Assembly (NCBI GenBank): GCA_900546005.1
Contig: URBJ01000052.1
Coordinates: 1-15,331 of the forward strand
DNA from: an uncultured Alistipes sp.
GTDB lineage: Bacteria; Bacteroidota; Bacteroidia; Bacteroidales; Rikenellaceae
Reading direction: 5' to 3'
Length of the DNA: 15,331 bases
The notes beneath the pieces are model-generated. The model was not told where the DNA came from and did no database searches. It worked only from the letters and a program-made list of their open reading frames with translations. The translations under genes were made by a program, and so were the position numbers. Every line of letters begins with the position of its first letter. Position 1 is the first letter of the stretch. Positions 412-15,331 of this stretch are shown here, one piece after another.

Positions 412-431
412 CAAAGTCCGCTTGCTGAACC

Positions 432-2741
432 ATGAAAAAGATCAATAAAATAAGTCTAAAGATTCGTGCAATAATAACCTGCGGAATAGTTCTCCTTGCA
501 GGCATGAACTCTTGTTCGAAATCGGAGTCCACTACGGAACCGCCCCACATACCGCCCTCCGATTCAAGCACATTCGTCACCCTTCAGATGACTGACTACG
601 AGATCGCCGGCGAGAAGATCGCGGGGGAGAACGAACTGCAAGAGCTCCGGGCCTACCGGTTCGAGAACGGACATCTGGTCCAAATTCTCGACCGTCCGAC
701 CACCGGCTCCGAGGGCTATGGGTTCCGACTCGATCGCCCGGTCGGCACGCTCTACGTCGTATCGAACACAAACGACATCTCCGCCCTCAACAACCTGCAA
801 GGCTCCGGGATTTCCGAGCAGGAGTGGCTTAAACTTACGACCGGTACGAAGGAGGGGCTACCGATCCGATTCTTCTCCGGCAGTACCTCCCTTTCGGGAA
901 GCTCGTCCAAGATGGTCAAAATGACCCGCGGATTTGCCCGCTTCGATCTACAGATCCGCACTTCGGGAGAGACAGCGATCGAATCTCTCACTTTGGGAAA
1001 CCGTACGCTCTCAACCCCTCTCTTTGCCGGTACTGATTCGGGCTCCACGCCTCCTCAATCGGGCAATCTGACGATCCAGCCCGACAAGCCGTACACCCAA
1101 GACACTCCGGGCTTCGCGTACGTTTACGAACAGACGGACACCGAAGCAACGCTTTTTGCCGAAGCGATCGTCGATGGCGAACGAACCCACCTCGAAGCGA
1201 AACTTCCGGAAATCATCCGAAGAAACTGCATATATGTCGTAAGCGTAACGAAAGAGGAGTCCGACGCGGCTGTTCAATTGACAGTCGAAGCATGGCAGGA
1301 GGGCGACCAGATCGGAATGCACCCCGGTTTGGACGGCACCATCACGGTGGATACCGACCGGTCGGAACTCCCCGAAACCGCAACCGTTACCGACAGCGGA
1401 ACAAAACTGATCCTGCCGCACAACCTTACAGACTTTCTTTTGGCTTTAGATTGCAACGATGAGCTGGAGCTTCTTCCTCCCGATAACGACGATCTGACCA
1501 TCGAACCGCTGGGCTCCGTACGGGAGACGTATGCCGTGAATCTGTTTCGGATCCAGAAGCCGCTGTTCGCCCCCGGGATGCCCACCCGAACGGTTGAGCT
1601 CAAATTCCGACGGAAAGGGTTGAACAACGTCTACCCCGAAGACCGAATTTTGGTTACCCTTTCGGCCAATCCTGTCGATCTCGAAGGGGAAATCTCCTTC
1701 GACACGAAGAGCTACTCCTTCGACTTCGATCGCTACGTCGACAACGAACTGGGACGTTTCACCGTGCCGTCCGACAAAAAACTCACGGTAGAGTTCGAGG
1801 CCGGTGAAGATCCGTGGATCAAACTCGCTCCCAGTGACGAAGACAACAACACACTCCGCGTACTGGGCGGATGGAAGCCAAACGATCCGACAGCCGACGG
1901 CCGGATTCAACGGGCCACACTCGTCATCTGCAATGCAGCCGACGGTTCCGAGCGGGAAGAGTATCAGATCTCTCGACGCAATTACGGTCTGCCGGTCACA
2001 AGGTTCCATGGTGTCTGGTGGTGCAAATACAACGCTCGGGGCAACTCCAAAAGTTTCGACGATCAGATTCTCTGCGCCTCCGATCCAGCGGTTGCTGCGG
2101 GTAAAAGCGTTCTCGACTACCTCCGGGACTGCTCGCCCGAGGAGTTCTACGATCTGTGGGGCTGGGCCTATCAAGGCGATAGCGGAATCGGCCTGCGGGT
2201 GGTCGAACAGAACGGCACGGTCGTGATGAAGGGCTTCTCATCATCCGTTTCGGCCCACATCAACAAGCTCCCGGCCGATGCCTTGGCTCCCGACGGATAC
2301 GAACTTCCCTCGATGGAGGAGTTCAACCGGATGTTCGACGCGACCGACTATGTCTGGATGATGTGGAGCGGCTCTCACCTGTTACGAAACCCGTGGGAAG
2401 GGCACAGCAAGGTCATCAGGGAGCAACGTCGCCGCAACGACCTGAGTGTTGGCACCGTACAGACTCCCGACCTGATCTACATCGGCATGTCGAGTCCCGA
2501 CTTTCCGGACTTCGAACCGGTCACTTGGTACGGACCCGGAGCCCAATGGAATGCGGACGGCATAAAACACGCCAACCACTACAACAACATCCTGTTTGCA
2601 GTACATTCACCGGAAGGCACGGGATGGTACATGGCCGGCAACATGTCTGCCCTCTACCTGCAGAAAAACGGTGCGGGAAATAAAGATACCCGTATCCTTC
2701 GTTTCAAAAAATCGCCGGTAGAGTATATATACGGGGAATAA
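432..2741 (+). CDS. Fimbrillin/Mfa-like lipoprotein with C-terminal adhesin-type domain
   Basis: A 769-residue protein from ATG 432. Residues 1-28 form a lipoprotein signal peptide: basic start, hydrophobic run, then LAGMNSC with Cys28 as the likely lipidated residue. Residues about 47-290 have the look of Bacteroidetes fimbrial-subunit N-terminal domains (VTLQMTDYEIAG, then RGFARFDLQI in a beta-rich context). Residues about 410-515 resemble a BACON/Ig-like beta domain. Residues about 525-769 form the C-terminal domain shared with the upstream protein. It includes GYELPSMEEFNRMF, recalling the lectin-like fold of FISUMP/formylglycine-enzyme-type domains, and ends in KSPVEYIYGE. The likely role is a surface-anchored fimbrial tip or accessory adhesin. 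Domain names are inferred by eye. No chaperone, usher or FimA-type major subunit is visible in the window. Confidence 0.72.
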   Translation: MKKINKISLKIRAIITCGIVLLAGMNSCSKSESTTEPPHIPPSDSSTFVTLQMTDYEIAGEKIAGENELQELRAYRFENGHLVQILDRPTTGSEGYGFRLDRPVGTLYVVSNTNDISALNNLQGSGISEQEWLKLTTGTKEGLPIRFFSGSTSLSGSSSKMVKMTRGFARFDLQIRTSGETAIESLTLGNRTLSTPLFAGTDSGSTPPQSGNLTIQPDKPYTQDTPGFAYVYEQTDTEATLFAEAIVDGERTHLEAKLPEIIRRNCIYVVSVTKEESDAAVQLTVEAWQEGDQIGMHPGLDGTITVDTDRSELPETATVTDSGTKLILPHNLTDFLLALDCNDELELLPPDNDDLTIEPLGSVRETYAVNLFRIQKPLFAPGMPTRTVELKFRRKGLNNVYPEDRILVTLSANPVDLEGEISFDTKSYSFDFDRYVDNELGRFTVPSDKKLTVEFEAGEDPWIKLAPSDEDNNTLRVLGGWKPNDPTADGRIQRATLVICNAADGSEREEYQISRRNYGLPVTRFHGVWWCKYNARGNSKSFDDQILCASDPAVAAGKSVLDYLRDCSPEEFYDLWGWAYQGDSGIGLRVVEQNGTVVMKGFSSSVSAHINKLPADALAPDGYELPSMEEFNRMFDATDYVWMMWSGSHLLRNPWEGHSKVIREQRRRNDLSVGTVQTPDLIYIGMSSPDFPDFEPVTWYGPGAQWNADGIKHANHYNNILFAVHSPEGTGWYMAGNMSALYLQKNGAGNKDTRILRFKKSPVEYIYGE

Positions 2742-2761
2742 AACTCCCTTGATCTTTAGCT

Positions 2762-2871
2762 ATAAGGGCGAACCATTCGACTCCGGACGGCGTTGTCTTC
2801 TATGAAAATCGACAAAGGGAGACAGGTTGCTACCACACGACAACGCAACGACCGGACAGGTTCGCCCTTAT
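2762..2871. repeat. Nested inverted repeat in the convergent intergenic gap
   Basis: Two 13-bp arms match perfectly as inverse complements: 2762-2774 (ATAAGGGCGAACC) and 2859-2871. Inside them a second 8-bp pair, 2790-2797 (GCGTTGTC) and 2839-2846, also matches, with a CCGG pair at 2783-2786 and 2852-2855. The element could fold into one long interrupted stem of about 110 nt. It contains no convincing reading frame. It could be a degraded MITE-like element, a structured RNA, or a read-through-blocking fold. The sequence alone does not decide. Confidence 0.5.
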
Positions 2872-3008
2872 TGGTTTTTATTCCTCTTTCTGTTTTTGGG
2901 AGGGACCGAATCGGTCGCGACTCGCCTTGTAAGGCATTGGGACGACTCGCTACAACTTTTCCGGAGCAGACTCTTTTCGACCCCTACTGCTCGGCATGAT
3001 CTCACAAC

Positions 3009-3045
3009 AGCGGGGCCGTCTTCATTGAATGAAGACGGCCCCGCT
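3009..3045. terminator. 37-bp perfect palindrome, probable bidirectional terminator hairpin
   Basis: Arms 3009-3026 and 3028-3045 are exact inverse complements around a single central G, with a GC-rich base (AGCGGGGCCGTC). It lies between the adhesin gene (ending 2741, +) and the ECF-type gene (ending 3126, -), where a shared terminator is expected. Neither side has a clean T-tract, so intrinsic termination is inferred from the stem and position. Apart from this and the nested repeat at 2762-2871, nothing else was recognised in 2742-3125. Confidence 0.55.
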
Positions 3046-3125
3046 CTATTTCCCTCCCAATTTCCTATCGGACCGGATTCTTCGCTTTCGACTCCGATCC
3101 CAATCTGGAAATCACGAATGTTCTC

Positions 3126-3638
3126 TTATCGCCGAATCAGCCGATTAATAAACAACCATCCACCGACAATCTGCAGCGCCATTCCGGGCAATCCGATCCG
3201 AAAATCCTGTACGGCAAGGGCAAAATCACCTACAATCGCCCATTCGCCCAAGGTTCCGAGAATCTGGTAAGCCAACACGACGGCAACCAACAATCCGAAC
3301 GATGCCCGTTTGAAATGCGAAGCCGCATATCCGGCAGCCAATGCCAGCAGAACCGACTTCAGCAAGATAGCCGGAAGGCCCGCCACTGGAGGCATTCCGA
3401 ACCACATCGAGTTCAACAACGGCGAAAAGACTGCGGTCAACAGTCCGACACGCCATCCATATTTATAGGCCCCAATCAGTGTAAAGAAGTAGATCGGCAG
3501 CCATCTCACCCCTCCTTGCGGGACAAGGTGGCACAACTGCGGCAGAACGATATTCCCCACAACAAACAATGCGGCAACCCAATAGGTCTTCACCCGGTTG
3601 TATTTCAGCGAATAGAATTTTACTGTTGTTGCTTCCAT
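3126..3638 (-). CDS. ECF-type transporter S-component-like membrane protein
   Basis: A 170-residue, very hydrophobic protein with five or six predicted membrane segments (about 20-36, 47-62, 64-78, 86-106, 113-131, 147-164). The pattern QGGVRWLPIYFF, YGWRVGL, SPLLNSMWFGMPP is characteristic of Bacteroidetes proteins annotated as ECF transporter S components, the small membrane proteins that bind a vitamin or cofactor and dock on a shared EcfT/EcfAA' module. No ATPase or T component is in the window, so it would be an orphan S-component. The substrate cannot be read from the sequence. It starts at ATG 3638, 24 bp after the stop of the aldo/keto reductase gene, so it is probably the last gene of the redox operon. 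Confidence 0.72.
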   Translation of the reverse strand: MEATTVKFYSLKYNRVKTYWVAALFVVGNIVLPQLCHLVPQGGVRWLPIYFFTLIGAYKYGWRVGLLTAVFSPLLNSMWFGMPPVAGLPAILLKSVLLALAAGYAASHFKRASFGLLVAVVLAYQILGTLGEWAIVGDFALAVQDFRIGLPGMALQIVGGWLFINRLIRR

Positions 3639-3662
3639 CTTACATAAAACGTTTAAATTTCA

Positions 3663-5069
3663 CTACTCATTTTCCGACACACCAAACTCCTTACCTTGCT
3701 TCAGCGTCTCCACAAACGCATTGATACGATGCATTTCGTGGGGAATATTAATGCTCTGCGGACAATGCTCGATACACTGCCCACAACCGATACAATGATC
3801 TGCCTGACGGAGACGGGGCACACTACGGTCATACCCGACAAGGAAAGCCCGTCGTGCCCGCCGATAGTTCTCGTCCTGCGACGAAGCCGGAAGATTCCCC
3901 TCGTTGACACACTTGTTGTAGTGCAGCAAAACGGCAGGTATGTCGATGCCGTACGGACACGGCATACAATATTTGCAGTCGTTACACGGAATCGTCGGAT
4001 ACTGCATCATCAGATCGGCCACGTGTCGCAAAAATTCCTGTTCACTCTCATCCAAAGGTACCAACGGAGAGTAGGTACGAATGTTATCCTGCAGATGTTC
4101 CATATAGGTCATGCCGCTGAGTACCGTCAGCACCTTTTCGGGCGTACCGGCAAAACGGAAGGCCCATGACGCCACACTGGTCTCCGGATTGCGTTGTTTC
4201 AACTCCGATACGACATGGTCCGGCACATTCGACAGACGTCCGCCGAGCAGGGGTTCCATGATAACGGCCGGAATATTGCGTTTTTCCAGCTGATCGTACA
4301 GATAAACGGCATTTACATTATTATTCGAGGCATGCTCCCAGTCGACATAGTTGAGCTGGATCTGCACAAAGTCCCAATGCACCGTATCGTGCATCGCCAA
4401 CACCTCGTCGAAGACATCGACCGTACTGTGGAACGAAAAGCCCAAGTTCCGAATACGTCCCGCTTCACGCTCTTTCAGCAGATAATCCAACATGCCGTTA
4501 TCGATGTACCGGGCCCGGAACGTCTTGATTCCGCCGTTGCCGATCGAGTGCAGCAGGTAGTAGTCGATATAATCCACCTGAAGCTCCTCGAACGATTTTT
4601 TGTACATGGCGATCGAGTTCTCCCGCGTAAAGTTCGAGAAGTTAGAGAGCTTGGTCGCAATCTGGAATTTTTCGCGCGGATGACGCTTCAGGGCATTTCC
4701 CGTAGACTTCTCGGACCAGCCCTGTACGTACACCGGAGACGTATCGAAATAGGTCACTCCATGTGCAATGGCGTAATCGACCAACTCGTTGACCGCATCC
4801 TGATCGATCACATTGCCATCTCCGTCGGGCGAAGGCAGCGTCGGCCACCGCATACACCCATAGCCCAACAACGACACCCGCTCTCCACTCTTCGGATTGG
4901 TCCGGTAGGTCATCTGATCGGTAGGAACCTCACCCTGTGCCATACGATCACCCGAGATCTGATTTTTCTTCGAATCGCATCCCACGAGGGCAGCCGTCGT
5001 CGTTGCCGTACTGATCCCTACGATCTTCAAAAAATCACGACGCGATATATTTTTTTGTTTAGGATTCAT
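3663..5069 (-). CDS. Tat-exported lipoprotein aldo/keto reductase with C-terminal 4Fe-4S motifs
   Basis: A 468-residue protein. ATG 5069 is preferred over the longer frame to 5189 because it places the twin-arginine signal (SRRDFLK, Arg10-Arg11) at the N-terminus and avoids overlap with the upstream gene ending at 5096. A hydrophobic stretch ends in LVGC, with Cys31 a likely lipobox cysteine. Residues about 58-340 are an aldo/keto reductase barrel with the full catalytic tetrad: Asp109 and Tyr114 (YFDTSPVY), Lys140 (ATK), His174 (YYLLH). After it come C362xxCxxCxxC371P and C426xxCxxCxxxC436P, the ferredoxin-like tail typical of Fe-S aldo/keto reductases. The signal predicts a folded, cofactor-loaded enzyme exported and lipid-anchored at the inner or outer membrane. 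The substrate is unknown. It sits 26 bp downstream of the polyferredoxin, its likely electron partner. Confidence 0.88.
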   Translation of the reverse strand: MNPKQKNISRRDFLKIVGISTATTTAALVGCDSKKNQISGDRMAQGEVPTDQMTYRTNPKSGERVSLLGYGCMRWPTLPSPDGDGNVIDQDAVNELVDYAIAHGVTYFDTSPVYVQGWSEKSTGNALKRHPREKFQIATKLSNFSNFTRENSIAMYKKSFEELQVDYIDYYLLHSIGNGGIKTFRARYIDNGMLDYLLKEREAGRIRNLGFSFHSTVDVFDEVLAMHDTVHWDFVQIQLNYVDWEHASNNNVNAVYLYDQLEKRNIPAVIMEPLLGGRLSNVPDHVVSELKQRNPETSVASWAFRFAGTPEKVLTVLSGMTYMEHLQDNIRTYSPLVPLDESEQEFLRHVADLMMQYPTIPCNDCKYCMPCPYGIDIPAVLLHYNKCVNEGNLPASSQDENYRRARRAFLVGYDRSVPRLRQADHCIGCGQCIEHCPQSINIPHEMHRINAFVETLKQGKEFGVSENE

Positions 5070-5095
5070 ATCCGTAAATTTTTCTTTTAAACATT

Positions 5096-6610
5096 CTATA
5101 TCATCCGGTGTCTCTCGTGCCCTTCGACATAAATCGCACTGAACGGACGGGACGGACAGAGATTTTCGCAGGCTCCGCAGCCGATACACTTCTCCTCATT
5201 TACAACAGGAATCTTCGGAGAGTTGGGATTCGCCGGATCGGAGGGAACCATCGCAATAGCCCCGGTCGGGCAGTGACGTGCACAGTTTCCGCACTCCACG
5301 CCATCGGTCAACGGAATGCAGTTCTCCTTCACCCACACCGCATGACCGACCTGTATGGCCGACTTGTCCGCCGGCGTAATTTTCAGGATCGCTCCCGTCG
5401 GACACACCTCCGAACACTTCACACACTCGGGTCGGCAGTACCCCCGCTCGTAGGAGGCTTCGGGTTGCATCAATACGGACCATCCGGTCGAAGGCCGCAA
5501 TACGCCCGTCGGACACACCGACACACAGAGCTGACACCCCGTACAGTGGGCCGCCATATTCCGCAGGCTTTGTGCTCCGGGCGGTACGATCGGCGTCGCA
5601 CGGTTCGGAATCTTTTTATCCAGAATCACGGCTAACCCTCCATCGACTTTCTTCTCTTGTGCCCGAACCGCAGCCGTCGCCGCCAAAAGGCCCACACCCG
5701 AGAGGAACATCCGACGGCCCGTATCGACTTTTCCGCTGTCGTTCGAACAAGACTCGGGCTTCGCCGAATCCGGCTTCGCGACACTCCGCATCGGTCTCAG
5801 TCGATAGCTGATCGCCTTCTCCCGACACGATTCGATACAATCCATACATGCCACACATCGGCTGTAATCAATCCGATGGGCTTTCGGATCGATACACGAG
5901 GCCTTACAACGCCGCGAACAGAGTGTACAGCCCGTACACTTTGTCGTATCGATTACCGGGCGGAAGAGAGAGAAACGTGAGATGAAACCCAATACCGTTC
6001 CTACCGGACAGATCGTATTGCAGTAGGTCCGTCCGTTGCGCCACGCCAGAATGACAACCGCAACAAAGGTTACGGCCGCAACGATAAAGGTCGGCAGGCT
6101 CTTGATCCACACCTCTTTCTCATAGAAGGCATAACTGTCCATACGTTCAGCCATGTAGGCCAACAGGTTGTTACCCCAACCCCATAGCGGAGCGAACAGG
6201 TTCTGTGCAATCCGTCCGTATGCCCCGTAGGGATCCAACAGGGCCACGAACGAACCGACTCCGGCGATCAGCGCAATGACCAGTAGCGCCAGCATCGTGT
6301 AGCGCAGCCACGAGATGGCCGGAGAGTAGAAAAAGCGATAACGTTTCTTTTTACGCCGACCGTTCAACCACGACACGATATCCTGCATCACGCCCAGCGG
6401 ACAGATCACCGAACAATAGACCCGACCGAAAAGCCATGTCACCAGAATCAGTACAACCACTACGCCCAGATTCAGTGCCAGCACAGCCGGCAGGAACTGC
6501 ACTTTTGCGAGCCATCCGAACCATGCGTGCAGTGTCCCCGTAAAATCGAGGAACAGCAACGTAATCAGTACGAAACAGATCGCCGCCAGCAAAATTCTTA
6601 TTTTCCTCAA
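5096..6610 (-). CDS. Membrane polyferredoxin: NapH-like domain, internal Tat motif, tetra-cluster ferredoxin domain
   Basis: A 504-residue protein. Membrane segments lie at about 5-25, 42-62, 103-125 and 173-191. Two CxxxCP motifs of the NapH/MauN type (C66/C70, C197/C201) follow segments 2 and 4. Two ferredoxin motifs come next (C225xxCxxCxxxC235 and C252xxCxxCxxxC262). A twin-arginine stretch TGRRMFLSGVGLLAATAAV (298-315) precedes a domain with four more cluster motifs (C356-C366, C392-C403, C440-C447 with C431 nearby, C475-C485). This is the plan of a protein inserted by Sec for the first helices and by Tat for the last. The role is inferred as electron transfer from a quinol or cytoplasmic donor to the periplasmic face. 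The start is TTG at 6610: a stop lies four codons upstream and the next in-frame Met is residue 75. It is first gene of the operon. Confidence 0.85.
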   Translation of the reverse strand: MRKIRILLAAICFVLITLLFLDFTGTLHAWFGWLAKVQFLPAVLALNLGVVVVLILVTWLFGRVYCSVICPLGVMQDIVSWLNGRRKKKRYRFFYSPAISWLRYTMLALLVIALIAGVGSFVALLDPYGAYGRIAQNLFAPLWGWGNNLLAYMAERMDSYAFYEKEVWIKSLPTFIVAAVTFVAVVILAWRNGRTYCNTICPVGTVLGFISRFSLFRPVIDTTKCTGCTLCSRRCKASCIDPKAHRIDYSRCVACMDCIESCREKAISYRLRPMRSVAKPDSAKPESCSNDSGKVDTGRRMFLSGVGLLAATAAVRAQEKKVDGGLAVILDKKIPNRATPIVPPGAQSLRNMAAHCTGCQLCVSVCPTGVLRPSTGWSVLMQPEASYERGYCRPECVKCSEVCPTGAILKITPADKSAIQVGHAVWVKENCIPLTDGVECGNCARHCPTGAIAMVPSDPANPNSPKIPVVNEEKCIGCGACENLCPSRPFSAIYVEGHERHRMI

Positions 6611-6639
6611 TATAAAATTTTATTATAACGACTTTTATT

Positions 6640-6647
6640 CAAATATA
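6640..6647 (-). promoter_or_regulatory. Candidate -7 box for the redox operon
   Basis: On the minus strand 6647-6640 reads TATATTTG, a perfect match to the Bacteroidetes -7 consensus TAnnTTTG. It would give a leader of roughly 20 nt before the TTG start at 6610. No TTG/TTTG element lies at the expected distance upstream, so the support is partial. The rest of 6611-6852 shows no other feature. Confidence 0.4.
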
Positions 6648-6852
6648 TTCCCTTCAATGGTATCTCTCGCATTCCGTTCTCCATTCGAACGGTAAAACTA
6701 CAGCTTTTGACCGAAAAACGATAACCCCTATTCCGGATTATTCAACCGATTTTACGGATTATACTCACCCGTTCCCCACACCTATACCTCCTATAACTTC
6801 TACTACTACCCGAGCCCCCTATTTATTAAAGGTCTGTCCGAACGCTTACTCC

Positions 6853-7299
6853 TCAACGCTTCCCCACCGCAGATCGGGAGAGCTCATGAACAAACCGATC
6901 AATAATTTCCCGACACTCCTCCACCGTCTTCGCATGGATACACCGCTTTTCCAACGGACACCAATCCGATCCTTGCCGGTTGATGATGTGGGGAACTTCC
7001 GTTGCGAACGCTGCATCGACCCCGTAAGTCCGGAAAAACTCCAATGCCGGCGTGCTGATCACCCGCGCAAAAACACCCTTCACCCCACCCTGAATCATCA
7101 AGGCTGCCGCACCGCGTCCCACAACCTTATCCGCGACAAAGGCTCCACGCAGAAATTCAGGCTCTTCGGTCAGCAATCGATACAGGTCCGAAACACCCCG
7201 GCCATAAAACGACCGTACGGTCGCCCCGTTTCCAACCACGCACGAACAATTTTCTGTCGTAAGAAGATCAATAATCCGCTGCCGTTCCAAATCCTTCAT
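6853..7299 (-). CDS. DUF1893 domain protein
   Basis: A 148-residue soluble protein starting at ATG 7299. It matches the DUF1893 family pattern: an N-terminal strand pair (CSCVVGNG), GAFVADKVVGRGAAALMIQGGV at about 52-73, STPALEFF, and the end signature NRQGSDWCPLEKRC (107-120). Proteins of this family have, as I recall, a cytidine-deaminase-like fold, but no catalytic activity is established. The Cys-rich CPLE motif could bind a metal, which is inference. It lies upstream of the polyferredoxin on the same strand but 242 bp away, with a possible separate promoter between, so membership of that operon is uncertain. Confidence 0.78.
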   Translation of the reverse strand: MKDLERQRIIDLLTTENCSCVVGNGATVRSFYGRGVSDLYRLLTEEPEFLRGAFVADKVVGRGAAALMIQGGVKGVFARVISTPALEFFRTYGVDAAFATEVPHIINRQGSDWCPLEKRCIHAKTVEECREIIDRFVHELSRSAVGKR

Positions 7300-7459
7300 A
7301 GTTCGTCAAGTTTTCACCGCTTCACCCGGGTAGACCATCCCTTTTCAACACCCGTTACCACACACTCTCCCACTGCGGCACCCTCCATCCTTCTCCACCC
7401 AACACATACCCCACCGGTCACCGTCCTACACGCCTTCGGCTTCGTCTGTTTTCGACCTC

Positions 7460-7467
7460 CAAAATTA
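7460..7467 (-). promoter_or_regulatory. Possible -7 box for the DUF1893 gene
   Basis: On the minus strand 7467-7460 reads TAATTTTG, matching TAnnTTTG. No upstream -33 element was found at the usual spacing, and the implied leader would be about 150 nt. The match could be chance in this T-rich stretch. The remainder of 7300-7700 is pyrimidine-rich on the plus strand and shows no gene or repeat I can support. Confidence 0.22.
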
Positions 7468-7727
7468 CATATTTTCTCAAAAAAATCGTTTTTTCTCTTC
7501 CATTTTACCTCAAATCACACGCTTCGAAACGTTTTGAGTTCGAGAGCCCTATCCTTTGTTCTCTTCATACAATACACCGTCCTCATTTTAGACATTCACC
7601 TCACGTGAACCCCCGCAAACCATTCGCATACATCTTTTCCATCCTCATTTGTGTAGCTTTCCGATTTCTCCTTGGGGCTTTACTCTTTTCCTACCCCGTT
7701 AAAAAACATAAAAAAATATACTTTGTA

Positions 7728-7759
7728 TTGCATAGTATAAAAACAAATTTATATATTTG
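7728..7759 (+). promoter_or_regulatory. Bacteroidetes-type promoter of the PspC/PadR operon
   Basis: TTG at 7728-7730 (ATTG) is followed, after 21 bp, by TATATTTG at 7752-7759, a perfect TAnnTTTG box. Transcription would start near 7766, leaving a leader of about 60 nt before the preferred ATG at 7825. The surrounding A/T-rich tract supports the assignment. Confidence 0.65.
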
Positions 7760-7824
7760 CAAAAACAAATAACTTGGAAGACCAAACAGAGCTTTCAACG
7801 AAACACAAAAAAAATTCTACCGCT

Positions 7825-8337
7825 ATGAAAAAGACCGTAAACGTGAATATCGGCGGAATCGCATTTATTTTAGACGAGGATGCCTATCTCTCGCTGAAGA
7901 GATACCTTGCCGAGATCGAGATCCGGCTGGACGGCACCGAAGACAAAGAGACCATGCAAGACATAGAGACCCGTATAGCCGATATTTTCAACGAGACCCT
8001 CACCTCACGCAACCAAGTTGTCGACCTTCCATTGGTACAACGGGCCATGGCCATTATCGGAAATGCACAGGAGTTCGGCGAGCCGCGCCGCAGCCTGACG
8101 CCCGACGAACCGACTTCCGCTCCGAACTACCGCAGGCTCTACCGCAGCCGCAACGACCAGATCGTCGGAGGCGTCTGTGGAGGCATCGCCGAATACTTCG
8201 AGATCGATCCTACGCTGATCCGTATCTTGATGGCCCTGTTCATCATCTTCGGGATCGGACTGATCGTCTATATCGTCCTGTGGATCATCATCCCGAAGGC
8301 TCCAGAAACCCGTTATCCCAATACATCGAACTTTTAA
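7825..8337 (+). CDS. PspC domain membrane protein (short paralogue)
   Basis: A 170-residue protein. ATG 7825 is chosen because the protein then begins MKKTVNVNIGGIAF, which aligns with the start of the second PspC protein (MNTIQVNIGGIGF). A TTG at 7774 would add 17 unconserved residues. Residues 1-90 form a cytoplasmic domain conserved between the two copies (NIGGI, then DIETRI). Residues about 103-160 are the PspC domain: RRLYRSRNDQIVGGVCGGIAEYF, then a membrane helix (about 131-157) ending in WIIIPKAP. PspC proteins sense or transmit envelope stress, and Bacteroidetes versions often sit with PadR regulators. The PadR gene starts 19 bp downstream. The stimulus is unknown. Confidence 0.85.
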   Translation: MKKTVNVNIGGIAFILDEDAYLSLKRYLAEIEIRLDGTEDKETMQDIETRIADIFNETLTSRNQVVDLPLVQRAMAIIGNAQEFGEPRRSLTPDEPTSAPNYRRLYRSRNDQIVGGVCGGIAEYFEIDPTLIRILMALFIIFGIGLIVYIVLWIIIPKAPETRYPNTSNF

Positions 8338-8356
8338 GCGCAAGGAGACTCTCGTC

Positions 8357-8695
8357 ATGACAGAACTGAATATCGACAACATCAAAGCCCAGATGCGGAA
8401 AGGAATCTTAGAGTACTGCATCCTTTCGATCATCTCGCGTCAGGACGCCTACGCCTCATCGATCATCGCCGAGCTGAAGAAAGCCGAAATGATCGTGGTC
8501 GAAGGGACGCTCTATCCGCTGCTTACCCGCCAGAAGAATCAAGGTTTGCTCACGTACCGCTGGGAGGAGTCGCCACAGGGTCCTCCGCGAAAATACTATT
8601 CGATCACCCCAAAGGGCAGGGAGTGTCTGGCACAACTCGATCAGGCATGGAGCGAACTCGTTGCGCAGATTGCGGTCATCCGTAACGAACAATAG
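8357..8695 (+). CDS. PadR family transcriptional regulator
   Basis: A 112-residue protein matching the short PadR winged-helix type in length and layout: MRKGILEYCILSIIS, SIIAELKKA, VEGTLYPLLTRQKNQGLL as recognition region, then RKYYSITPKG as the wing. PadR proteins are usually repressors that bind an operator near their own operon and respond to a small molecule or membrane signal. An AAGGAG at 8342-8347 sits nine bases before ATG 8357, a more Shine-Dalgarno-like site than its neighbours have. It lies between the two PspC genes and probably controls this operon. No operator palindrome was identified. Confidence 0.9.
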   Translation: MTELNIDNIKAQMRKGILEYCILSIISRQDAYASSIIAELKKAEMIVVEGTLYPLLTRQKNQGLLTYRWEESPQGPPRKYYSITPKGRECLAQLDQAWSELVAQIAVIRNEQ

Positions 8696-8707
8696 CACGA
8701 TAGAGCC

Positions 8708-9958
8708 ATGAATACCATTCAAGTCAACATCGGAGGTATCGGATTCTCATTGGAAGAGGAGGGGTATCGTCTGCTCAAGGAGTATCTGGTCCAGTTAGAG
8801 GTCCGGCTTCGCGAAAATCCGGACAGAAAGGAGATTGTCTCCGACATCGAGGCACGCATCTGCGAACTGATTCTCGACGAACAGAGCCCCGAAAATATCG
8901 TCTCGACCTCGCGAATCAAGGAGATTATCGAGCAACTCGGACTTCCGGACGGGGCGACCTCCTCTTCGGACAACGAGCCTGTGCCCCTGCAAACCGAATA
9001 TCCGAAGGAGTCGATCACCAGACGTCTTTATCGCAATCCGGACGGAGCCAAGATCGGAGGCGTATGCAGTGGTCTGGCCACCTATTTTCAGATTGAGCCG
9101 ACGATCATCCGCTTGCTGTTCTGCTCTCCGTTGCTGCTGCTGATCTGCGTCAGCGTCATACCGGTCGCCAATATGCTTTGTCCCCTCTTCGGGGTGATGA
9201 TTCCGGTCAGCCTGCTGCTCTACCTGATCCTGTGGTTCGCCATCCCGAAAGCCCGCACCCCCCGGCAGAGATTAGAGATGACGGGGAGCCCCATCACGGC
9301 AGCCTCCATCAGCCAAACCCTGAGCAACGAGATGTACGACAAGCACCCCTCCCCGGAAAACAGCCGTAGCGCCTCCATACTGGGTGAACTGCTCTTTACG
9401 ATCGGACGCATCGTACTCTTCTGCCTCAAGGCCTTCATGCTGATCGTTGCAATCGTGTTGAGTCTGGTCGTTCTGTTCGCCGGAATTGCATTCATCGCCT
9501 TGATAGTCGGACTGTTCGCCTTCGACGTCTCGTGGGAACACCCCCTTGTTCTGGCACTCCTGTCGCCTCTGGTCGTACTGCTCCCCACCGCCACGATCGT
9601 TTATCTGATCCTGAGGTGGTTATTTAAGGTACCCAAACGGGACAAGACCTTCTCCATCCTGACCGGAATCTGGATCCTGATTCTGATCTTCTTCGGAATA
9701 TTCCTCTTGAAAGAGTATCCGCATGTCGAAGATTGGTTCGACGACGGAGAGATCGAATGGTACTTCGAACAGATCCGACATCAGACATCCCCGGCAATCG
9801 TCCTGCCCACCGACACGACAAACGATACACCGGCTCTTCAGCCGGCCATCGACGTAGATTCAGCCAGTGCTGTACCTTTCGCGGTAACGACCGAGGCGGA
9901 TTCAATGAGCCGCGACACCCTCACTCCGAAAACAACAGAACCTTTAACCAACCCTTGA
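8708..9958 (+). CDS. PspC domain protein with extra membrane region (long paralogue)
   Basis: A 416-residue protein, 12 bp after the PadR gene. Residues 1-80 are the same N-terminal domain as in the short PspC protein (QVNIGGIGFSLEEEGY, then SDIEARICELI). Residues about 104-181 form the PspC domain (RRLYRNPDGAKIGGVCSGLATYF), enlarged by a second hydrophobic stretch, with helices at about 134-153 and 160-179. Residues 225-337 add about four more membrane segments (230-270 as two, 278-305, 316-335). The tail, about 336-416, is acidic then Thr/Pro-rich and hydrophilic. The architecture suggests an envelope-stress membrane sensor or scaffold duplicated from the short copy and extended. The function of the tail is unknown. 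Confidence 0.85.
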   Translation: MNTIQVNIGGIGFSLEEEGYRLLKEYLVQLEVRLRENPDRKEIVSDIEARICELILDEQSPENIVSTSRIKEIIEQLGLPDGATSSSDNEPVPLQTEYPKESITRRLYRNPDGAKIGGVCSGLATYFQIEPTIIRLLFCSPLLLLICVSVIPVANMLCPLFGVMIPVSLLLYLILWFAIPKARTPRQRLEMTGSPITAASISQTLSNEMYDKHPSPENSRSASILGELLFTIGRIVLFCLKAFMLIVAIVLSLVVLFAGIAFIALIVGLFAFDVSWEHPLVLALLSPLVVLLPTATIVYLILRWLFKVPKRDKTFSILTGIWILILIFFGIFLLKEYPHVEDWFDDGEIEWYFEQIRHQTSPAIVLPTDTTNDTPALQPAIDVDSASAVPFAVTTEADSMSRDTLTPKTTEPLTNP

Positions 9959-9965
9959 CCACACT

Positions 9966-10331
9966 ATGGAAATCATCCCGGACAACACCACGCGCAACAG
10001 GAAACAAATCTCCTACAACCGCACCCGTAATACCTATATCGGTTTTACACTGATCATAGCCAGTGTCGTCTGGCTGCTACACAACTTCGGAATACTCCCT
10101 CCCCCCGTATTCCACGCAATCTTTTCGTGGTCGATGCTGATAATCCTGATCGGAGGCTACCTGCTCGCGATACGACAATACGTTACAGGCGGCATCGTTA
10201 CCCTCGTAGGTCTCCTGCTCTTCCTGATCCGGACGTTCCATCTCCACTTCCCCATGGACAAGATTTTCGTTCCTCTGCTACTCTTCTGCACCGGAATCGC
10301 CTTTCTTGTTTCCATCCGGAACAAAGAGTAA
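9966..10331 (+). CDS. Small four-helix LiaI/LiaF-like membrane protein (DUF5668 type)
   Basis: A 121-residue protein only 7 bp after the long PspC gene, so co-transcribed. After a basic start (about 1-22) it has four hydrophobic segments at about 25-43, 49-67, 71-87 and 97-116, the pattern of the LiaI-LiaF-like transmembrane region (GFTLIIASVVWLLHNFGIL, then WSMLIILIGGYLLA). Such proteins accompany PspC domain proteins in cell-envelope stress operons in Bacteroidetes and Firmicutes. It has no visible catalytic residues. It is probably the last gene of the operon. Confidence 0.75.
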   Translation: MEIIPDNTTRNRKQISYNRTRNTYIGFTLIIASVVWLLHNFGILPPPVFHAIFSWSMLIILIGGYLLAIRQYVTGGIVTLVGLLLFLIRTFHLHFPMDKIFVPLLLFCTGIAFLVSIRNKE

Positions 10332-10334
10332 ACC

Positions 10335-10367
10335 TTTCATGAGATAAAAAAACCGGTCCTCATGAAA
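10335..10367 (+). terminator. Hairpin after the PspC/PadR operon (weak terminator candidate)
   Basis: TTTCATGAG at 10335-10343 is the inverse complement of 10359-10367, with a 15-nt A-rich loop. It lies just after the stop of the LiaI-like gene and before the pfkA promoter. There is no T-tract after it, so termination is uncertain and it could be a regulatory fold. Confidence 0.3.
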
Positions 10368-10386
10368 TCCGCTTCACAATAATTAC

Positions 10387-10394
10387 TACTTTTG
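10387..10394 (+). promoter_or_regulatory. -7 box of pfkA
   Basis: TACTTTTG at 10387-10394 matches the Bacteroidetes TAnnTTTG box, 38 bp before the pfkA start. No clear -33 TTTG is present. A separate promoter is expected because the gene has a different function from the upstream operon. Confidence 0.45.
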
Positions 10395-10416
10395 TGGCGA
10401 AGAAAAACGATAAAAT

Positions 10417-10426
10417 CAGAGGAGGT
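10417..10426 (+). promoter_or_regulatory. Strong Shine-Dalgarno site of pfkA
   Basis: AGAGGAGGT ends six bases before ATG 10433, a near-perfect anti-16S match. Bacteroidetes genes rarely use such sites and most other starts in this part of the window have none, so it stands out. It fixes the start codon. Confidence 0.65.
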
Positions 10427-10432
10427 TGATTT

Positions 10433-11413
10433 ATGGAAGGAAAACAATGTATAGGAATTCTGACCTCTGGAGGCGATGCTCCGGGAATGAATGCAGCGAT
10501 CCGTGCCGTAACCCGTACCGCGATCTATAACGGCTTCGAGGTAAAAGGGATCATGAGAGGCTATAAAGGATTGATTTCGGACGAAATCATACCGTTTCAG
10601 ACCGAAAACGTCAGCAACATCATCCAGCACGGAGGAACCATCCTGAAGACTGCACGGAGCGAAGAGTTCCGCACGGCTGAGGGACGTAAAACCGCATACG
10701 AAAACATCAAGAAGCACGGCATTACGGCATTAGTCGTAATCGGAGGCGACGGTTCGCTTACGGGAGCCCGCATCTTCGCTACCGAATACAACTTCCCGAT
10801 CGTCGGTGTCCCCGGCACGATCGACAACGACCTGTTCGGCACCGATACGACCATCGGTTACGACACCGCACTGAACACGATTGTCGAGGCTGTCGACAAA
10901 ATCAGGGATACGGCAACATCCCACGAACGGATCTTCTTCATCGAAGTGATGGGGCGTGAAGCGGGTTTTCTGGCCTTGAATGGTGCTATCGCTTCGGGAG
11001 CCGAAGCCGCCATCATTCCCGAAATTGCCACTGAGGTCGACCAGCTGGGCGAATTTATCCAACACGGCTTCCGTAAATCGAAAAACAGCAGCATCGTCTT
11101 GGTTGCCGAAAGCGAGCTGACCGGAGGTGCGATGGGGTTGGCCGAACGGGTCAAGAACGAATTTCCACAATACGACGTTCGGGTCACGATCTTGGGACAC
11201 ATCCAACGGGGCGGATCGCCAAGTGCCACAGACCGGATCCTCGCCAGTCGTATGGGAGAGGCTGCCATACATGCGCTGATCGAGGATCAGCGGAACGTCA
11301 TGATCGGCATACAGAACGACGAATTGGTTTACATTCCGTTCAGCAAAGCGATCAAGAATCAGAAACCGATCAAACGCGAATTGCTGAACACGCTGAAAAC
11401 GCTGTCGATCTAA
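10433..11413 (+). CDS. pfkA: ATP-dependent 6-phosphofructokinase
   Basis: A 326-residue protein of the standard bacterial PfkA length. It phosphorylates fructose 6-phosphate to fructose 1,6-bisphosphate in cytoplasmic glycolysis. All key motifs are present: [16 protein letters not shown] (9-24, ATP loop), GGDGS (104-108), PGTIDND (127-133, catalytic Asp131), MGREAG (173-178) and GHIQRGG (255-261). The Gly in GGDGS rather than GGDDS points to ATP rather than pyrophosphate as donor. The gene has its own -7 box, a strong ribosome site and an intrinsic terminator at 11444-11478, so it appears monocistronic. Confidence 0.97.
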
Positions 11414-11443
11414 CATCATACGATGTCATATTTTCACACAAAA

Positions 11444-11478
11444 CCGGATGGTTCTCAATGGGACCGTCCGGTTTTTTT
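11444..11478 (+). terminator. Intrinsic terminator of pfkA
   Basis: A stem of CCGGATGGTTC (11444-11454) with 11461-11471 (GGACCGTCCGG, including G-U pairs), preceded by AAAA and followed by seven T at 11472-11478. It starts 31 bp after the pfkA stop. Its presence argues against the in-frame ATG at 11448, inside the stem, as start of the next gene. Confidence 0.88.
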
Positions 11479-11531
11479 ATTACTTTTACGCATCATTTAT
11501 GACACATACCGGCATCATTAACTATTTCGCC

Positions 11532-12446
11532 ATGGGACATCACGATCATCACCACATCCATTCGATCGACCACTTGAACCGGGCTTTTCTGATCGGAATA
11601 CTGCTGAATCTGATATTCGTTATCGTAGAACTTACGGCAGGTCTATTTTTGGACTCGATCGCACTGATCTCCGACGCGGGACATAACCTAAGCGATGTGA
11701 TCAGTCTGGTTGTATCGCTGTTCGCATTCCGTCTGGCACGATTAAAACCGACTCCTCATTACACATACGGATACAAGAAGAGCACGGTTCTGGCCTCACT
11801 GTTCAATGCCTGCATCCTGCTGGTTGCAGTCGGAGCAATACTGATGGAGAGTTTCGACAAGCTGCGGAATCCTCAACCCATCGAAGGGAACAGCATCGCA
11901 TGGGTGGCAGGAGTAGGCATCCTCGTCAACGCTTTCACGGCTTGGCTCTTCCTCAAGGACAGGAAGCACGACCTGAATGTCAAAGGAGCCTTCCTGCACA
12001 TGGCGGCCGACACGTTAGTTTCGGTCGGAGTGGTCATCTCCGGAATCATCATCTCCTATACGGGATGGTACATTATCGACCCGGTGATCGGTATCGTCAT
12101 TTCGGTCGTCATCCTGATTTCGAGCATCCGGCTGTTGCATGACAGCCTTCGGCTTTCGTTGGACGGAGTCCCTGAAGGCATCGACATCGAGCAGCTCCGG
12201 CAACGGCTATTGGCATCCGATCCTCGTATTCAGGGCATCCATCACCTGCACGTCTGGGCCATCAGCACCACCGAAAACTCCCTGACCGCACATATCGTTA
12301 CGGAGGATATACAACACGCAGCCGAGATCAAACATGCCCTGCACGAGCGACTGAAACAGGAGGGCATCCTTCATGCAACGTTAGAATTCGAACGCCCGGA
12401 GGAGACCTGTGACGCTCCGGAATGCGACTGCGGAAGAGAGCATTAG
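11532..12446 (+). CDS. Cation diffusion facilitator, zinc-type metal/proton antiporter
   Basis: A 304-residue protein from ATG 11532, chosen because it gives the usual His-rich CDF start (MGHHDHHHIH). ATG 11448 lies in the pfkA terminator and ATG 11499 adds 11 unconserved residues. Six membrane helices lie at about 17-35, 40-66, 84-104, 120-141, 155-176 and 180-202. The metal site is complete: HNLSD (His51, Asp55) in helix 2 and HMAAD (His156, Asp160) in helix 5, the HxxxD pair typical of zinc exporters such as ZitB. The cytoplasmic C-terminal domain (HHLHVWAIS, residues 237-245) is followed by a Cys-rich tail, CDAPECDC (293-300). The likely role is efflux of Zn2+ (or Co2+/Cd2+) from the cytoplasm. 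A degenerate -7 box (TACTTTTA, 11481-11488) may drive it. Confidence 0.93.
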   Translation: MGHHDHHHIHSIDHLNRAFLIGILLNLIFVIVELTAGLFLDSIALISDAGHNLSDVISLVVSLFAFRLARLKPTPHYTYGYKKSTVLASLFNACILLVAVGAILMESFDKLRNPQPIEGNSIAWVAGVGILVNAFTAWLFLKDRKHDLNVKGAFLHMAADTLVSVGVVISGIIISYTGWYIIDPVIGIVISVVILISSIRLLHDSLRLSLDGVPEGIDIEQLRQRLLASDPRIQGIHHLHVWAISTTENSLTAHIVTEDIQHAAEIKHALHERLKQEGILHATLEFERPEETCDAPECDCGREH

Positions 12447-12513
12447 CCCACATTTTCCGTTCGGAAACCCGCATGCAGCGTGCTCATTTTCGATTTTTGC
12501 AACCAAAAAAATT

Positions 12514-12543
12514 TTTGCTTTATCGTTTTTTTGATTATCTTTG
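12514..12543 (+). promoter_or_regulatory. Bacteroidetes-type promoter of the tRNA gene
   Basis: TTTG at 12514-12517 and TATCTTTG at 12536-12543 are separated by 18 bp, a full match to the TTTG/TAnnTTTG promoter. The tRNA 5' end follows 11 bp later. This ties the 5' half of the tRNA to the Bacteroidales side. Confidence 0.75.
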
Positions 12544-12553
12544 CACTGCAAAT

Positions 12554-12629
12554 CGCGGGGTGGAGCAGTTGGCAGCTCGTTGGGCTCATAACCCAAAGGT
12601 CGGTAGTTCGAGTCTACTGCGACCCACCA
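12554..12629 (+). tRNA. tRNA-Met (CAT), initiator-like 5' part with mismatched 3' acceptor strand
   Basis: A 76-nt cloverleaf: D stem GAGC/GCTC (12563-12566, 12575-12578), anticodon stem TTGGG/CCCAA with loop CTCATAA (anticodon 12587-12589), T stem GGTAG/CTACT with loop TTCGAGT (12607-12613), A73 and an encoded CCA (12627-12629). The three G-C pairs at the base of the anticodon loop and C at position 1 mark an initiator tRNA. However, the acceptor strands, CGCGGGG (12554-12560) and GCGACCC (12619-12625), form only two of seven pairs. The 5' strand would need CCCCGCA; the 3' strand would need GGGTCGC. As written it cannot be a working tRNA. The best explanation is a join of two different tRNA-Met genes. 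Confidence 0.8.
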
Positions 12630-12631
12630 AG

Positions 12632-12660
12632 AAAAAACCGCCTGTTTCGGGCGGTTTTTT
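12632..12660 (+). terminator. Intrinsic terminator after the tRNA
   Basis: AAAAAACCGCC pairs with GGCGGTTTTTT around a short loop and ends in T6 at 12655-12660. It lies three bases after the CCA end, a usual position for a tRNA terminator. It belongs with the right-hand genome if the join is inside the tRNA. Confidence 0.85.
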
Positions 12661-12846
12661 CTATACAAAAAAAGGCTATACTAAACAGATGCCAAATAGG
12701 CGGTCTTTTCCACCCGCTGCCCGGCAGACCGCTGCAAACGCGGCCTGCCTTTTTTCGCGGACAAAAGGCGCCTTAAAAAAAATTTTTGATTCCCTGCAAT
12801 AAAACAGCGCCGCCGGGTATTTACTTAGTGAAAGGAGCGAGGTAAG

Positions 12847-13410
12847 ATGCTGATCTGCCTGATTGAGGAACCCGCAAAGCAGCCGCAGCAGGAGTTGGAG
12901 GACTGCCTTGCCGCACTGGCGGCAGGAGAGACGGACGCCATGGAGCCGCTCTACCGCATCGCCAACCCCGCGGTCTACGCCTTCGCCCTTTCCATCCTGA
13001 AAAGCGCCCAGGACGCGGAGGACGTCGCGCAGGACTGCTTTGTGCGCATCTTTCAGGCTGCGCCGGACTACCGGCCGATGGGCAAGCCCATGGCCTGGAT
13101 TCTGACCATCGCGCGCAACCTCTGTCTGCAAAAACTGCGGCAGGCAAAGCGCAGCGCCGCCGTTCCCTTTGAGGATTGGGAGACTTTTCTGGGCGCCGCG
13201 CCGGGAGACGAAGCCGATCGGCTCATCCTGGATCAGTTCATCCGCGAGTTGGATGAAACCGAACGGCAGCTGGTGGTGCTGCACGCGGTGGCCGGACTCA
13301 AGCACCGGGAAATTGCCGCGCTGCTGAACCTTCCGCTGGCCACAGCGCTCTCCCGCTACCACCGCGCCCTCAAAAAGCTCCGTGCAAAATGGGAGGTCGA
13401 AGCATCATGA
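12847..13410 (+). CDS. ECF-family RNA polymerase sigma factor
   Basis: A 187-residue protein. Region 2 spans about 34-100, with the DAEDVAQDCFVRIF core-binding helix (56-69) and MAWILTIARNLCLQKLR (82-98) for -10 recognition. Region 4 spans about 132-180: LDETERQLVVLHAVAGLKHREIAALL, then LATALSRYHRALKKLR as the -35 recognition helix. It has no region 1 or 3, as usual for ECF sigma factors. AAAGGAG at 12831-12837 stands nine bases before ATG 12847. Its stop overlaps the start of the next gene (ATGA at 13407-13410), the classic coupling to its own anti-sigma factor. The target promoter is unknown. The 217 bp upstream hold a 7-bp inverted repeat (12700-12706 with 12726-12732) but no promoter I could fix. 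Confidence 0.92.
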   Translation: MLICLIEEPAKQPQQELEDCLAALAAGETDAMEPLYRIANPAVYAFALSILKSAQDAEDVAQDCFVRIFQAAPDYRPMGKPMAWILTIARNLCLQKLRQAKRSAAVPFEDWETFLGAAPGDEADRLILDQFIRELDETERQLVVLHAVAGLKHREIAALLNLPLATALSRYHRALKKLRAKWEVEAS

Positions 13411-14900
13411 CAGAAAAACGCATCCGCAAGGCCTTTGAACACGTCGCTCCCGACCATCTGAACGATGTGATGGAGCAATGCAACGCGCAGAAACAACAGC
13501 AGAAAGGAAAAATACTTTCGATGACAAACAAAACCCCCGTCCCAAAGCGCAGCCGTCTTCCCCGCATACTGGCCGCCGCGGCAGCCCTTGTGCTGCTGCT
13601 CACCGGCACCGCCGTTTACGGCCTGAACACCCGTGTCTGCGCCACGGTGGCGCTGGACGTCAACCCCAGTATTGAACTGAACGTCAACCGCAGGGAACGC
13701 GTCGTCTCCGTCTCCCCCATCAACAACGACGGCAAACAGATATTGGGCGATATGGATCTTACCGGCAGCGATTTGCAGGTTGCGGTCAATGCACTGGTGG
13801 GCTCCATGCTCCGCCAGGGCTATCTTTCCGAGCTTTCCAACTCCATCCTCATCAGCGTGGACAGCAGTGATCCCAGCGAAAGCGCCGCTCTTCAGGAAAG
13901 GCTGACGCAGGAAGTCGCCGCTTTGCTGGATACAAACAGCTTTTCCGGCGCGGTACTGAGTCAGACCGTAACAACCGACGCAGAGCTATCCTCTCTGGCC
14001 GAACAATACGGCCTGACGCCGGGCAAGGCGCAGCTGATCCGCCGCATCACGGAAAGCCATCCGCAGCACACCTTTGAGGATCTGGCCGGTCTTTCGGTCA
14101 ACGAGCTGAATCTGCTGCTCTCCTCCGCCCCGAATGCCGCCGAATCCAGCGCTTCTTCTGCCGTCTCCTCCACGGGTCGCGCCAGCGACCGTGCTTATAT
14201 CGGCAGCGAGCAGGCTCTGTCCATCGCCTTGACTGCCGCAGGGCTTACCGAAAGCGAGATTGCGCATCCGGAAATCGAAATGGATTACGAACACGGCCGC
14301 ATGATCTATGATGTCGAGTTCAAAGCCGGCGGTCGAGAATACGACTGCGAGATCGACGCGCTGACCGGCGAGATTCTCAAGGCTGAAACCGAACCGGCTC
14401 ACGAAGATCACGCCGCCGCGTCCGCATCCGCCGCGCTTCTCAGCGCAGAGAAAGCGCGTGATATTGCGTTGAAGCACGCAGGCGTTGCTTCTTCGGACGT
14501 CCGCAGCTGGGACTGCGATCTGGATGACGAGCATGGCCGCAAAGTCTACGAGGTGGAGTTCCAAGCCGGAAACACAGAATATGATTACGAAATCGACGCT
14601 GTGTCCGGTGAAATTCTCCAATCCAACGCCGAGTCGCACGATGCACAGCCCAAAGAAACCCATCCCAATACGGATACGGTTTCTTCCGGGCGGCTCAGCG
14701 AGAGCGAAGTGCGCAGCATCGTTTTGAAACACGCAAACGTCTCCTCTTCCGAAGTGACGAATTGGGACTGTGAATTGGATACCGACGACGGCGTCACAAT
14801 CTTTGAGATCGAATTCAAGGCCGGCGGTTACGAATATGACTACGAAGTCAGCGCGCTGACCGGTTCCATTCTCCAATACGACCGAGAACTGGACGACTGA
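13407..14900 (+). CDS. RsgI-like transmembrane anti-sigma factor with three PepSY-like repeats
   Basis: A 497-residue protein. ATG 13407 overlaps the sigma stop and has GGGAGG 10 bases upstream; ATG 13389 is less likely. Residues 1-50 are cytoplasmic and should bind the sigma factor. A single membrane helix spans 52-73. Outside, ATVALDVNPSIELNVN (79-94) matches the conserved core of RsgI-type middle domains, in which cleavage at the Asn-Pro bond (here 86-87) has been reported for Bacillus/Clostridium proteins. A helical part (150-240) is followed by a Ser/Ala-rich linker. Three tandem PepSY-like repeats of about 60 residues follow (267-326, 347-406, 431-491), each with an F-x-A-G core, then EYD-EI/V and LTG/VSG. 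Inferred role: sense an extracellular signal and release the sigma factor. The PepSY ligand is unknown. Confidence 0.88.
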   Translation: MTEKRIRKAFEHVAPDHLNDVMEQCNAQKQQQKGKILSMTNKTPVPKRSRLPRILAAAAALVLLLTGTAVYGLNTRVCATVALDVNPSIELNVNRRERVVSVSPINNDGKQILGDMDLTGSDLQVAVNALVGSMLRQGYLSELSNSILISVDSSDPSESAALQERLTQEVAALLDTNSFSGAVLSQTVTTDAELSSLAEQYGLTPGKAQLIRRITESHPQHTFEDLAGLSVNELNLLLSSAPNAAESSASSAVSSTGRASDRAYIGSEQALSIALTAAGLTESEIAHPEIEMDYEHGRMIYDVEFKAGGREYDCEIDALTGEILKAETEPAHEDHAAASASAALLSAEKARDIALKHAGVASSDVRSWDCDLDDEHGRKVYEVEFQAGNTEYDYEIDAVSGEILQSNAESHDAQPKETHPNTDTVSSGRLSESEVRSIVLKHANVSSSEVTNWDCELDTDDGVTIFEIEFKAGGYEYDYEVSALTGSILQYDRELDD

Positions 14901-14912
14901 TCCTGCTGGAAA

Positions 14913-14948
14913 AGCCTCATCCTATTTATCAAAGGATGAGGCTTTTTT
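14913..14948 (+). terminator. Intrinsic terminator of the sigma/anti-sigma operon
   Basis: AGCCTCATCCT (14913-14923) pairs perfectly with 14933-14943, with a 9-nt loop and T6 following. It begins 12 bp after the anti-sigma stop. Confidence 0.93.
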
Positions 14949-14964
14949 CTGCTCACGGCATTGA

Positions 14965-15268: not shown

Positions 15269-15290
15269 TTTTTCCCCGGAAAACCAAAAA

Positions 15291-15331
15291 GGACTGCTTC
15301 CTGATTCGTCCGTCAGGAAACAGCCTTTTTT
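15291..15331 (+). terminator. Intrinsic terminator at the window end
   Basis: CTGCTTCCTGA (15294-15304) pairs with TCAGGAAACAG (15313-15323), one mismatch, loop TTCGTCCG, then T6 at 15326-15331. It follows the TM2 remnant by 22 bp. Confidence 0.82.

What the first reader, a model, noticed from the sequence alone, without database searches (positions are those of the whole stretch)
12554..12660. A tRNA-Met whose two acceptor strands come from different tRNAs: a chimeric join between phyla
All arms of this tRNA fold except the acceptor stem, where CGCGGGG faces GCGACCC and only two of seven pairs form. The 5' half has a Bacteroidetes promoter and initiator features (C1, three G-C pairs by the anticodon loop). 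The 3' half has the acceptor strand of a different tRNA, an encoded CCA and a classic terminator, and is followed by genes of Firmicutes style. Integration into a tRNA normally restores the gene; this one is destroyed. A misassembly through a shared anticodon/T-arm segment (about 12580-12617) explains everything at once. If real, it would be an inter-phylum fusion that killed an initiator tRNA.
Basis: partly seen in the sequence, partly recalled or inferred. Interest (0 to 1): 0.75.

Follow-up and report, generated by a model that had tools for sequence, protein, structure and literature searches.

The report
Chimeric contig joined through tRNA genes
The broken tRNA is a seam where metagenome assembly most likely glued a Bacteroidales chromosome to a Clostridia chromosome through short stretches that their tRNA genes share, so it is very probably an assembly artefact and not a biological fusion.

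Summary
In detail: 12554-12629 is laid out as a tRNA with anticodon CAT whose D, anticodon and T stems pair fully but whose acceptor stem forms 2 of 7 pairs. Up to 12614 the window aligns with two same-genus genomes, where the same gene is an intact initiator tRNA followed by other DNA. Bases 12597-12629 are identical to the 3' end of tRNA-Ile(GAT) in three Clostridia records, and the ECF sigma/RsgI genes that follow have Clostridia relatives. The two end tRNAs share only 9 contiguous bases. A third gene bridges them: a Clostridia-class initiator tRNA identical to window 12554-12617 (64 of 64) shares 50 bases with the Bacteroidales gene and 21 with tRNA-Ile. All 69 22-mers of 12540-12629 occur in seven reference loci; of 68 23-mers one is missing. 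A short-k de Bruijn graph could spell exactly this. A real fusion would have broken what looks like this genus's only initiator tRNA. Verdict: assembly chimera, not a real feature. No reads were available to prove it, and the exact clostridial source was not found.

The parts
1..12614 (.). Bacteroidales chromosome segment (fimbrillin-like ORF region, Fe-S proteins, PspC protein, phosphofructokinase, cation efflux gene)
   Evidence: Aligns in order, in five pieces (1-2788, 3000-6627, 6878-7212, 7706-7772, 7809-12614) at 76-96% identity with G001 (L123), and from 778 on with G006 (L124) at 76-97%; Pfam families of five of its proteins. 'Fimbrillin-like' is a guess from reading, not searched.
12536..12553 (+). 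Bacteroidetes-type promoter -7 region (TATCTTTG) before the tRNA
   Evidence: 12540-12553 identical in L001; the motif's meaning is recalled
12554..12603 (+). 5' two thirds of an initiator tRNA(CAT): Bacteroidales source, also identical in the Clostridia-class initiator tRNA L050 (first shared stretch, 50 bases)
12604..12617 (+). T-arm piece TAGTTCGAGTCTAC: not Bacteroidales; identical in L050 initiator tRNA and in tRNA-Ile
   Evidence: 0 of 393 Bacteroidales-order genomes hold the 36-base pattern around it, 2 of 391 of the Clostridia class do
12597..12617 (+). Second shared stretch, 21 bases, common to the L050 initiator tRNA and clostridial tRNA-Ile; most likely the splice point
   Evidence: k-mer walk
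12597..12629 (+). 3' 33 bases of a clostridial tRNA-Ile(GAT), with encoded CCA
   Evidence: identical in L002, L003, L004
12630..12662 (+). Intrinsic terminator-like hairpin with T run
   Evidence: fold, z -6.97; not listed by the scan
12847..13410 (+). ECF sigma factor gene, clostridial
   Evidence: Pfam Sigma70_r2/r4_2; 98% identical proteins P0121, P0122, unnamed
13389..14900 (+). RsgI-like anti-sigma factor with PepSY repeats, clostridial
   Evidence: Pfam RsgI_M, PepSY; P0006 99% identical, unnamed; named rows among the 120 listed are Clostridia, Eubacteriales, Clostridiales or Firmicutes; operon in five loci of Clostridia-class relatives

Best explanation
The contig is an assembly chimera of unrelated genomes spliced at tRNA genes. 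Shown: the left 12.6 kb is a Bacteroidales-type locus that in relatives ends in an intact initiator tRNA; the right 2.7 kb begins with the 3' part of a clostridial tRNA-Ile and carries clostridial genes; a clostridial-class initiator tRNA exists that overlaps both by 50 and 21 identical bases. Inferred: a short-k de Bruijn assembly walked from the Bacteroidales initiator tRNA into a clostridial initiator tRNA, then out into a tRNA-Ile and its downstream genes. The hybrid tRNA has no function because it most likely exists in no cell.
For: Left match ends inside the tRNA: in G001 only window 11463-12614 of the 11448-15331 query matches, and no listed match in 61 genomes goes past window 12615. 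Orthologous gene intact in G001 and G006 with different DNA after it, 97% alike between those two. 12597-12629 = tRNA-Ile 3' end. L050 initiator tRNA = window 12554-12617, 64/64, and its locus stops one base later, as a contig broken at this repeat would. All 69 22-mers of 12540-12629 are found in seven reference loci; without the two clostridial initiator tRNAs 14 of 69 are missing. Bridging pattern 0 of 393 Bacteroidales-order, 2 of 391 Clostridia-class genomes. Tetranucleotide distances: right part vs 20 left segments 0.40-0.46; 105 pairs of non-overlapping left segments 0.25-0.33. Chimeric contigs from misassembly are described in PMC8201837 (passages seen).
Against: No reads, coverage or assembly graph. 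The window's own assembly is not held and its assembler is unknown. The reference tRNAs come from other genomes, not from this sample; with them the walk fails at k = 23 (1 of 68 missing), so it only works at a minimum k near 21. The exact clostridial source was not found, and the five operon loci of relatives have no tRNA in the fetched stretches, so tRNA-Ile next to this operon is not shown in any genome. The right part's composition is not much closer to the one clostridial locus tested (0.41, L112) than to the Bacteroidales one (0.44, L123), and GC3 hardly separates the sides (0.62-0.70 left; 0.78 and 0.68 right). PMC8201837 calls misassemblies relatively rare (passage); PMC8172020 reports chimeric contigs between highly similar genomes (passage), which these are not.
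Confidence: 0.72

Rival explanations
1. Also an artefact, but by another route: the sample's own Bacteroidales or clostridial tRNA has an unseen allele with a longer direct overlap, or a library (PCR/ligation) chimera was made at the tRNA and then assembled.
For: The sample's own source tRNAs were not found, so a longer overlap cannot be excluded; the three-source walk works only up to k = 22 with the references at hand.
Against: The T-arm piece 12604-12617 is not in 29 read Bacteroidales initiator tRNAs nor, in its 36-base pattern, in 393 sampled Bacteroidales-order genomes, while a clostridial initiator tRNA holds the whole of 12554-12617.
Confidence: 0.25
2. A real inter-phylum fusion: a clostridial segment starting in tRNA-Ile recombined into the initiator tRNA of a Bacteroidales cell and left a dead hybrid tRNA.
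For: The contig is gap-free (no N seen at the seam), and tRNA genes are known targets of integration (recalled).
Against: Integration into a tRNA normally restores the gene (recalled); here it is destroyed. Eight of nine genomes of the genus have exactly one match covering the tRNA and the ninth, 69% complete, has none (the first look scored at most 11 candidates per genome, so a second copy could be missed), so the cell would lack an initiator tRNA. Neither right-hand protein scanned is an integrase, though only 2.7 kb of that side is seen and its 110-aa ORF at 14936-15268 was not scanned. The breakpoint sits exactly in stretches shared by three tRNAs.
Confidence: 0.02

Closest known systems
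Chimeric contig from metagenomic misassembly (as described in GUNC, PMC8201837, passages seen)
   Same: Fragments of different genomes joined in one contig; lineage of the genes changes along the contig
   Different: Here the seam can be placed to within about 20 bases and the bridging sequence, a third organism's tRNA, can be named
Initiator tRNA (fMet) of Bacteroidales
   Same: 50 bases from the 5' end, C1, three G-C pairs by the anticodon loop, CAT anticodon
   Different: 3' acceptor strand and T stem from elsewhere; acceptor stem 2/7 instead of 6/7
tRNA-Ile(GAT) of Clostridia (L002-L004)
   Same: Last 33 bases identical
   Different: 5' part, anticodon and 5' acceptor strand are not those of tRNA-Ile
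Genomic island integrated in a tRNA 3' end
   Same: Foreign DNA begins inside a tRNA gene
   Different: Target tRNA not restored; no integrase among the two right-hand proteins scanned

Membership tests
Functional initiator tRNA | CAT anticodon and three G-C pairs next to the anticodon loop | tested here: met
Functional initiator tRNA | Acceptor stem that pairs (6/7 with the 1-72 mismatch) | tested here: not met
   2/7 against 6/7 in 28 of 29 relatives; ARAGORN none
tRNA-integrated genomic island | Target tRNA restored by the element | tested here: not met
tRNA-integrated genomic island | Integrase gene near the junction | tested here: inconclusive
   the two right-hand proteins scanned are a sigma factor and an anti-sigma factor; only 2.7 kb of that side is in the window and the 14936-15268 ORF was not scanned
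Assembly chimera through shared repeats | The two sides belong to different lineages | tested here: met
   the name of the left lineage rests on one named protein relative, Culturomica, and recalled features
Assembly chimera through shared repeats | Identical sequence at the seam long enough for a short k | tested here: met
   50 and 21 bases through a bridging tRNA; every 22-mer found, 1 of 68 23-mers missing. Direct overlap of the two end tRNAs is only 9 bases
Assembly chimera through shared repeats | Coverage step or no spanning reads | not testable with these tools
   no reads held; own assembly not held

The most novel reading that the evidence does not exclude
A Bacteroidales cell really carries a clostridial segment fused into its initiator tRNA, with a second initiator tRNA copy elsewhere keeping the cell alive.
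Probability: 0.02. Interest if true: 0.7.

Novelty: not a real feature. Interest (0 to 1): 0.08.

Why it matters
It matters as a caution. tRNA genes can splice genomes of different phyla in metagenome contigs, and a tRNA whose acceptor strands do not pair is a simple flag for such seams. Genes after about 12603 should not be counted as Bacteroidales genes or as horizontal transfer.

Tried and rejected
Rejected: integration of a mobile element (tRNA not restored; no integrase in the two right-hand proteins scanned). Rejected as sufficient: a direct one-step join from the Bacteroidales initiator tRNA to tRNA-Ile, because they share only 9 contiguous bases.

Tried without success: finding the exact clostridial source of the right side, in 3 genomes, a class sample of 391, a family sample of 200, two searches that returned one genome each, an order sample of 396, a family of 103 and a genus of 2. 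The closest by identity was G893: 55% over residues 3-329 of the anti-sigma protein, DNA 69% over about 480 bases. The 48-base junction pattern (12582-12629) is in no viral contig of that collection, nor is the tRNA-Ile end; the bridging pattern hit one, L127, a different tRNA-like gene. The terminator scan missed the hairpin, the fold shows it. My T-stem count was one base out of register; searches give the right one. One search stopped with an error after the rows used here, at L050, whose locus ends inside the gene.

Full report
What is there. Window 12554-12629 has the layout of a tRNA with anticodon CAT. D stem 4/4, anticodon stem 5/5 and T stem 5/5 pair, while the acceptor strands CGCGGGG and GCGACCC form 2 of 7 pairs. 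ARAGORN reports no tRNA in the window; Rfam matches one at 43.9 bits with a gap near the 5' end; alone, the strand does not fold better than shuffles (z -0.72).

Left side. G001 is the nearest held genome (33% of the window's sampled 31-mers). Window 1-12614 aligns with it in order in five pieces at 76-96% identity, and with G006 from 778 to 12614 at 76-97%. In both, the efflux gene, promoter region and first 50 tRNA bases continue into an intact initiator tRNA with 6/7 acceptor pairs, followed by DNA that is not in the window and is 97% alike in the two genomes over 2.2 kb. With the query 11448-15331, G001 gives one match, which ends at 12614. In 61 genomes (G001 and relatives) 55 match the query 12300-12640 and no listed match goes past 12615. 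Of the nine genomes of this genus eight have exactly one match covering the tRNA and the ninth, 69% complete, has none; the first look scored at most 11 candidates per genome.

Right side. 12597-12629 is identical to the last 33 bases of tRNA-Ile(GAT) in L002 (Christensenella sp. UBA7102), L003 and L004 (both titled uncultured Clostridia); these are the three stretches that the genome collection scan gave for the exact 32-base pattern. A terminator-like hairpin follows, then an ECF sigma gene and an RsgI-like anti-sigma gene with PepSY repeats. Proteins 98-99% identical to them exist but are unnamed; named rows among the listed ones that give a taxon are Clostridia, Clostridiales, Eubacteriales, Oscillospiraceae or Firmicutes. 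The operon is found in five loci of genomes drawn round the L003 genome and its order. Against: the source species was not found, and these five loci have no tRNA in the fetched stretches, so a genome with tRNA-Ile next to this operon is not shown.

The seam. The Bacteroidales initiator tRNA and the clostridial tRNA-Ile share only 9 contiguous bases. A search of 391 genomes of the class of L004's genome turned up L050 in G311, whose initiator tRNA is identical to window 12554-12617 (64 of 64) and whose locus stops one base later, presumably the contig's end. It shares 50 bases (12554-12603) with the Bacteroidales gene and 21 (12597-12617) with tRNA-Ile. All 69 22-mers of 12540-12629 occur in seven reference loci (L001, L005, L050, L051, L002, L003, L004); at 23, 1 of 68 is missing (start 12596); without L050 and L051, 14 of 69 22-mers are missing. 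The 36-base bridging pattern is in 0 of 393 sampled genomes of the Bacteroidales order and 2 of 391 sampled of the Clostridia class. So the middle of the tRNA looks clostridial too, and the composite has three sources. That common assemblers start at k of about 21 is recalled, not tested, and this window's assembler is unknown.

Composition. Tetranucleotide distance between the right part and 20 left segments is 0.40-0.46, against 0.25-0.33 among 105 pairs of non-overlapping left segments. The right part is hardly closer to one distant clostridial locus (0.41, L112) than to the Bacteroidales one (0.44, L123), so composition shows that the sides differ but does not name the source. GC3 hardly separates them (six left genes 0.62-0.70; right 0.78 and 0.68).

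Verdict. Assembly artefact, about 97% in all: 72% for the three-source walk, 25% for another artefactual route; about 2% for a real fusion. Chimeric contigs from misassembly are described in print, and called relatively rare (PMC8201837, passages seen); PMC8172020 reports them in a mock community between highly similar genomes (passages seen). Two paper searches listed 6 and 7 papers; going by titles and the starts of abstracts shown, none is about tRNA-mediated chimeras, but apart from passages of those two I read none.

Noticed in passing
L050, last 65 bases (G311:C40): Another genome's piece stops one base after the window-identical 64 bases of its initiator tRNA, which suggests that this tRNA stretch also breaks contigs elsewhere.
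   Followed up: partly
window 2789-2999: Both G001 and G006 have about 2.3 kb where the window has about 0.2 kb (between aligned pieces 1-2788 and 3000-6627): a deletion here, an insertion there, or another weak spot of the assembly.
   Followed up: no
window 13389-14900: Listed relatives of the RsgI-like protein come as 497 aa (99% identical) and 577 aa (86-87% identical); the 577-aa P0001 carries an extra near-exact PepSY-region repeat, so repeat number varies between near relatives.
   Followed up: no
window 12611-15331: The protein row P0129 (a piece of the sigma factor, 100% identical) lists a longest contig of 2721 bases, the same as the length from 12611 to the window's end; possibly a contig of another assembly that breaks at the tRNA, possibly coincidence.
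   Followed up: no
L127, 318-348 (- strand): A viral contig carries a tRNA-like gene with CAT anticodon and the same anticodon-to-T-arm sequence as the bridge, 94% alike over window 12557-12618, with other acceptor strands.
   Followed up: partly
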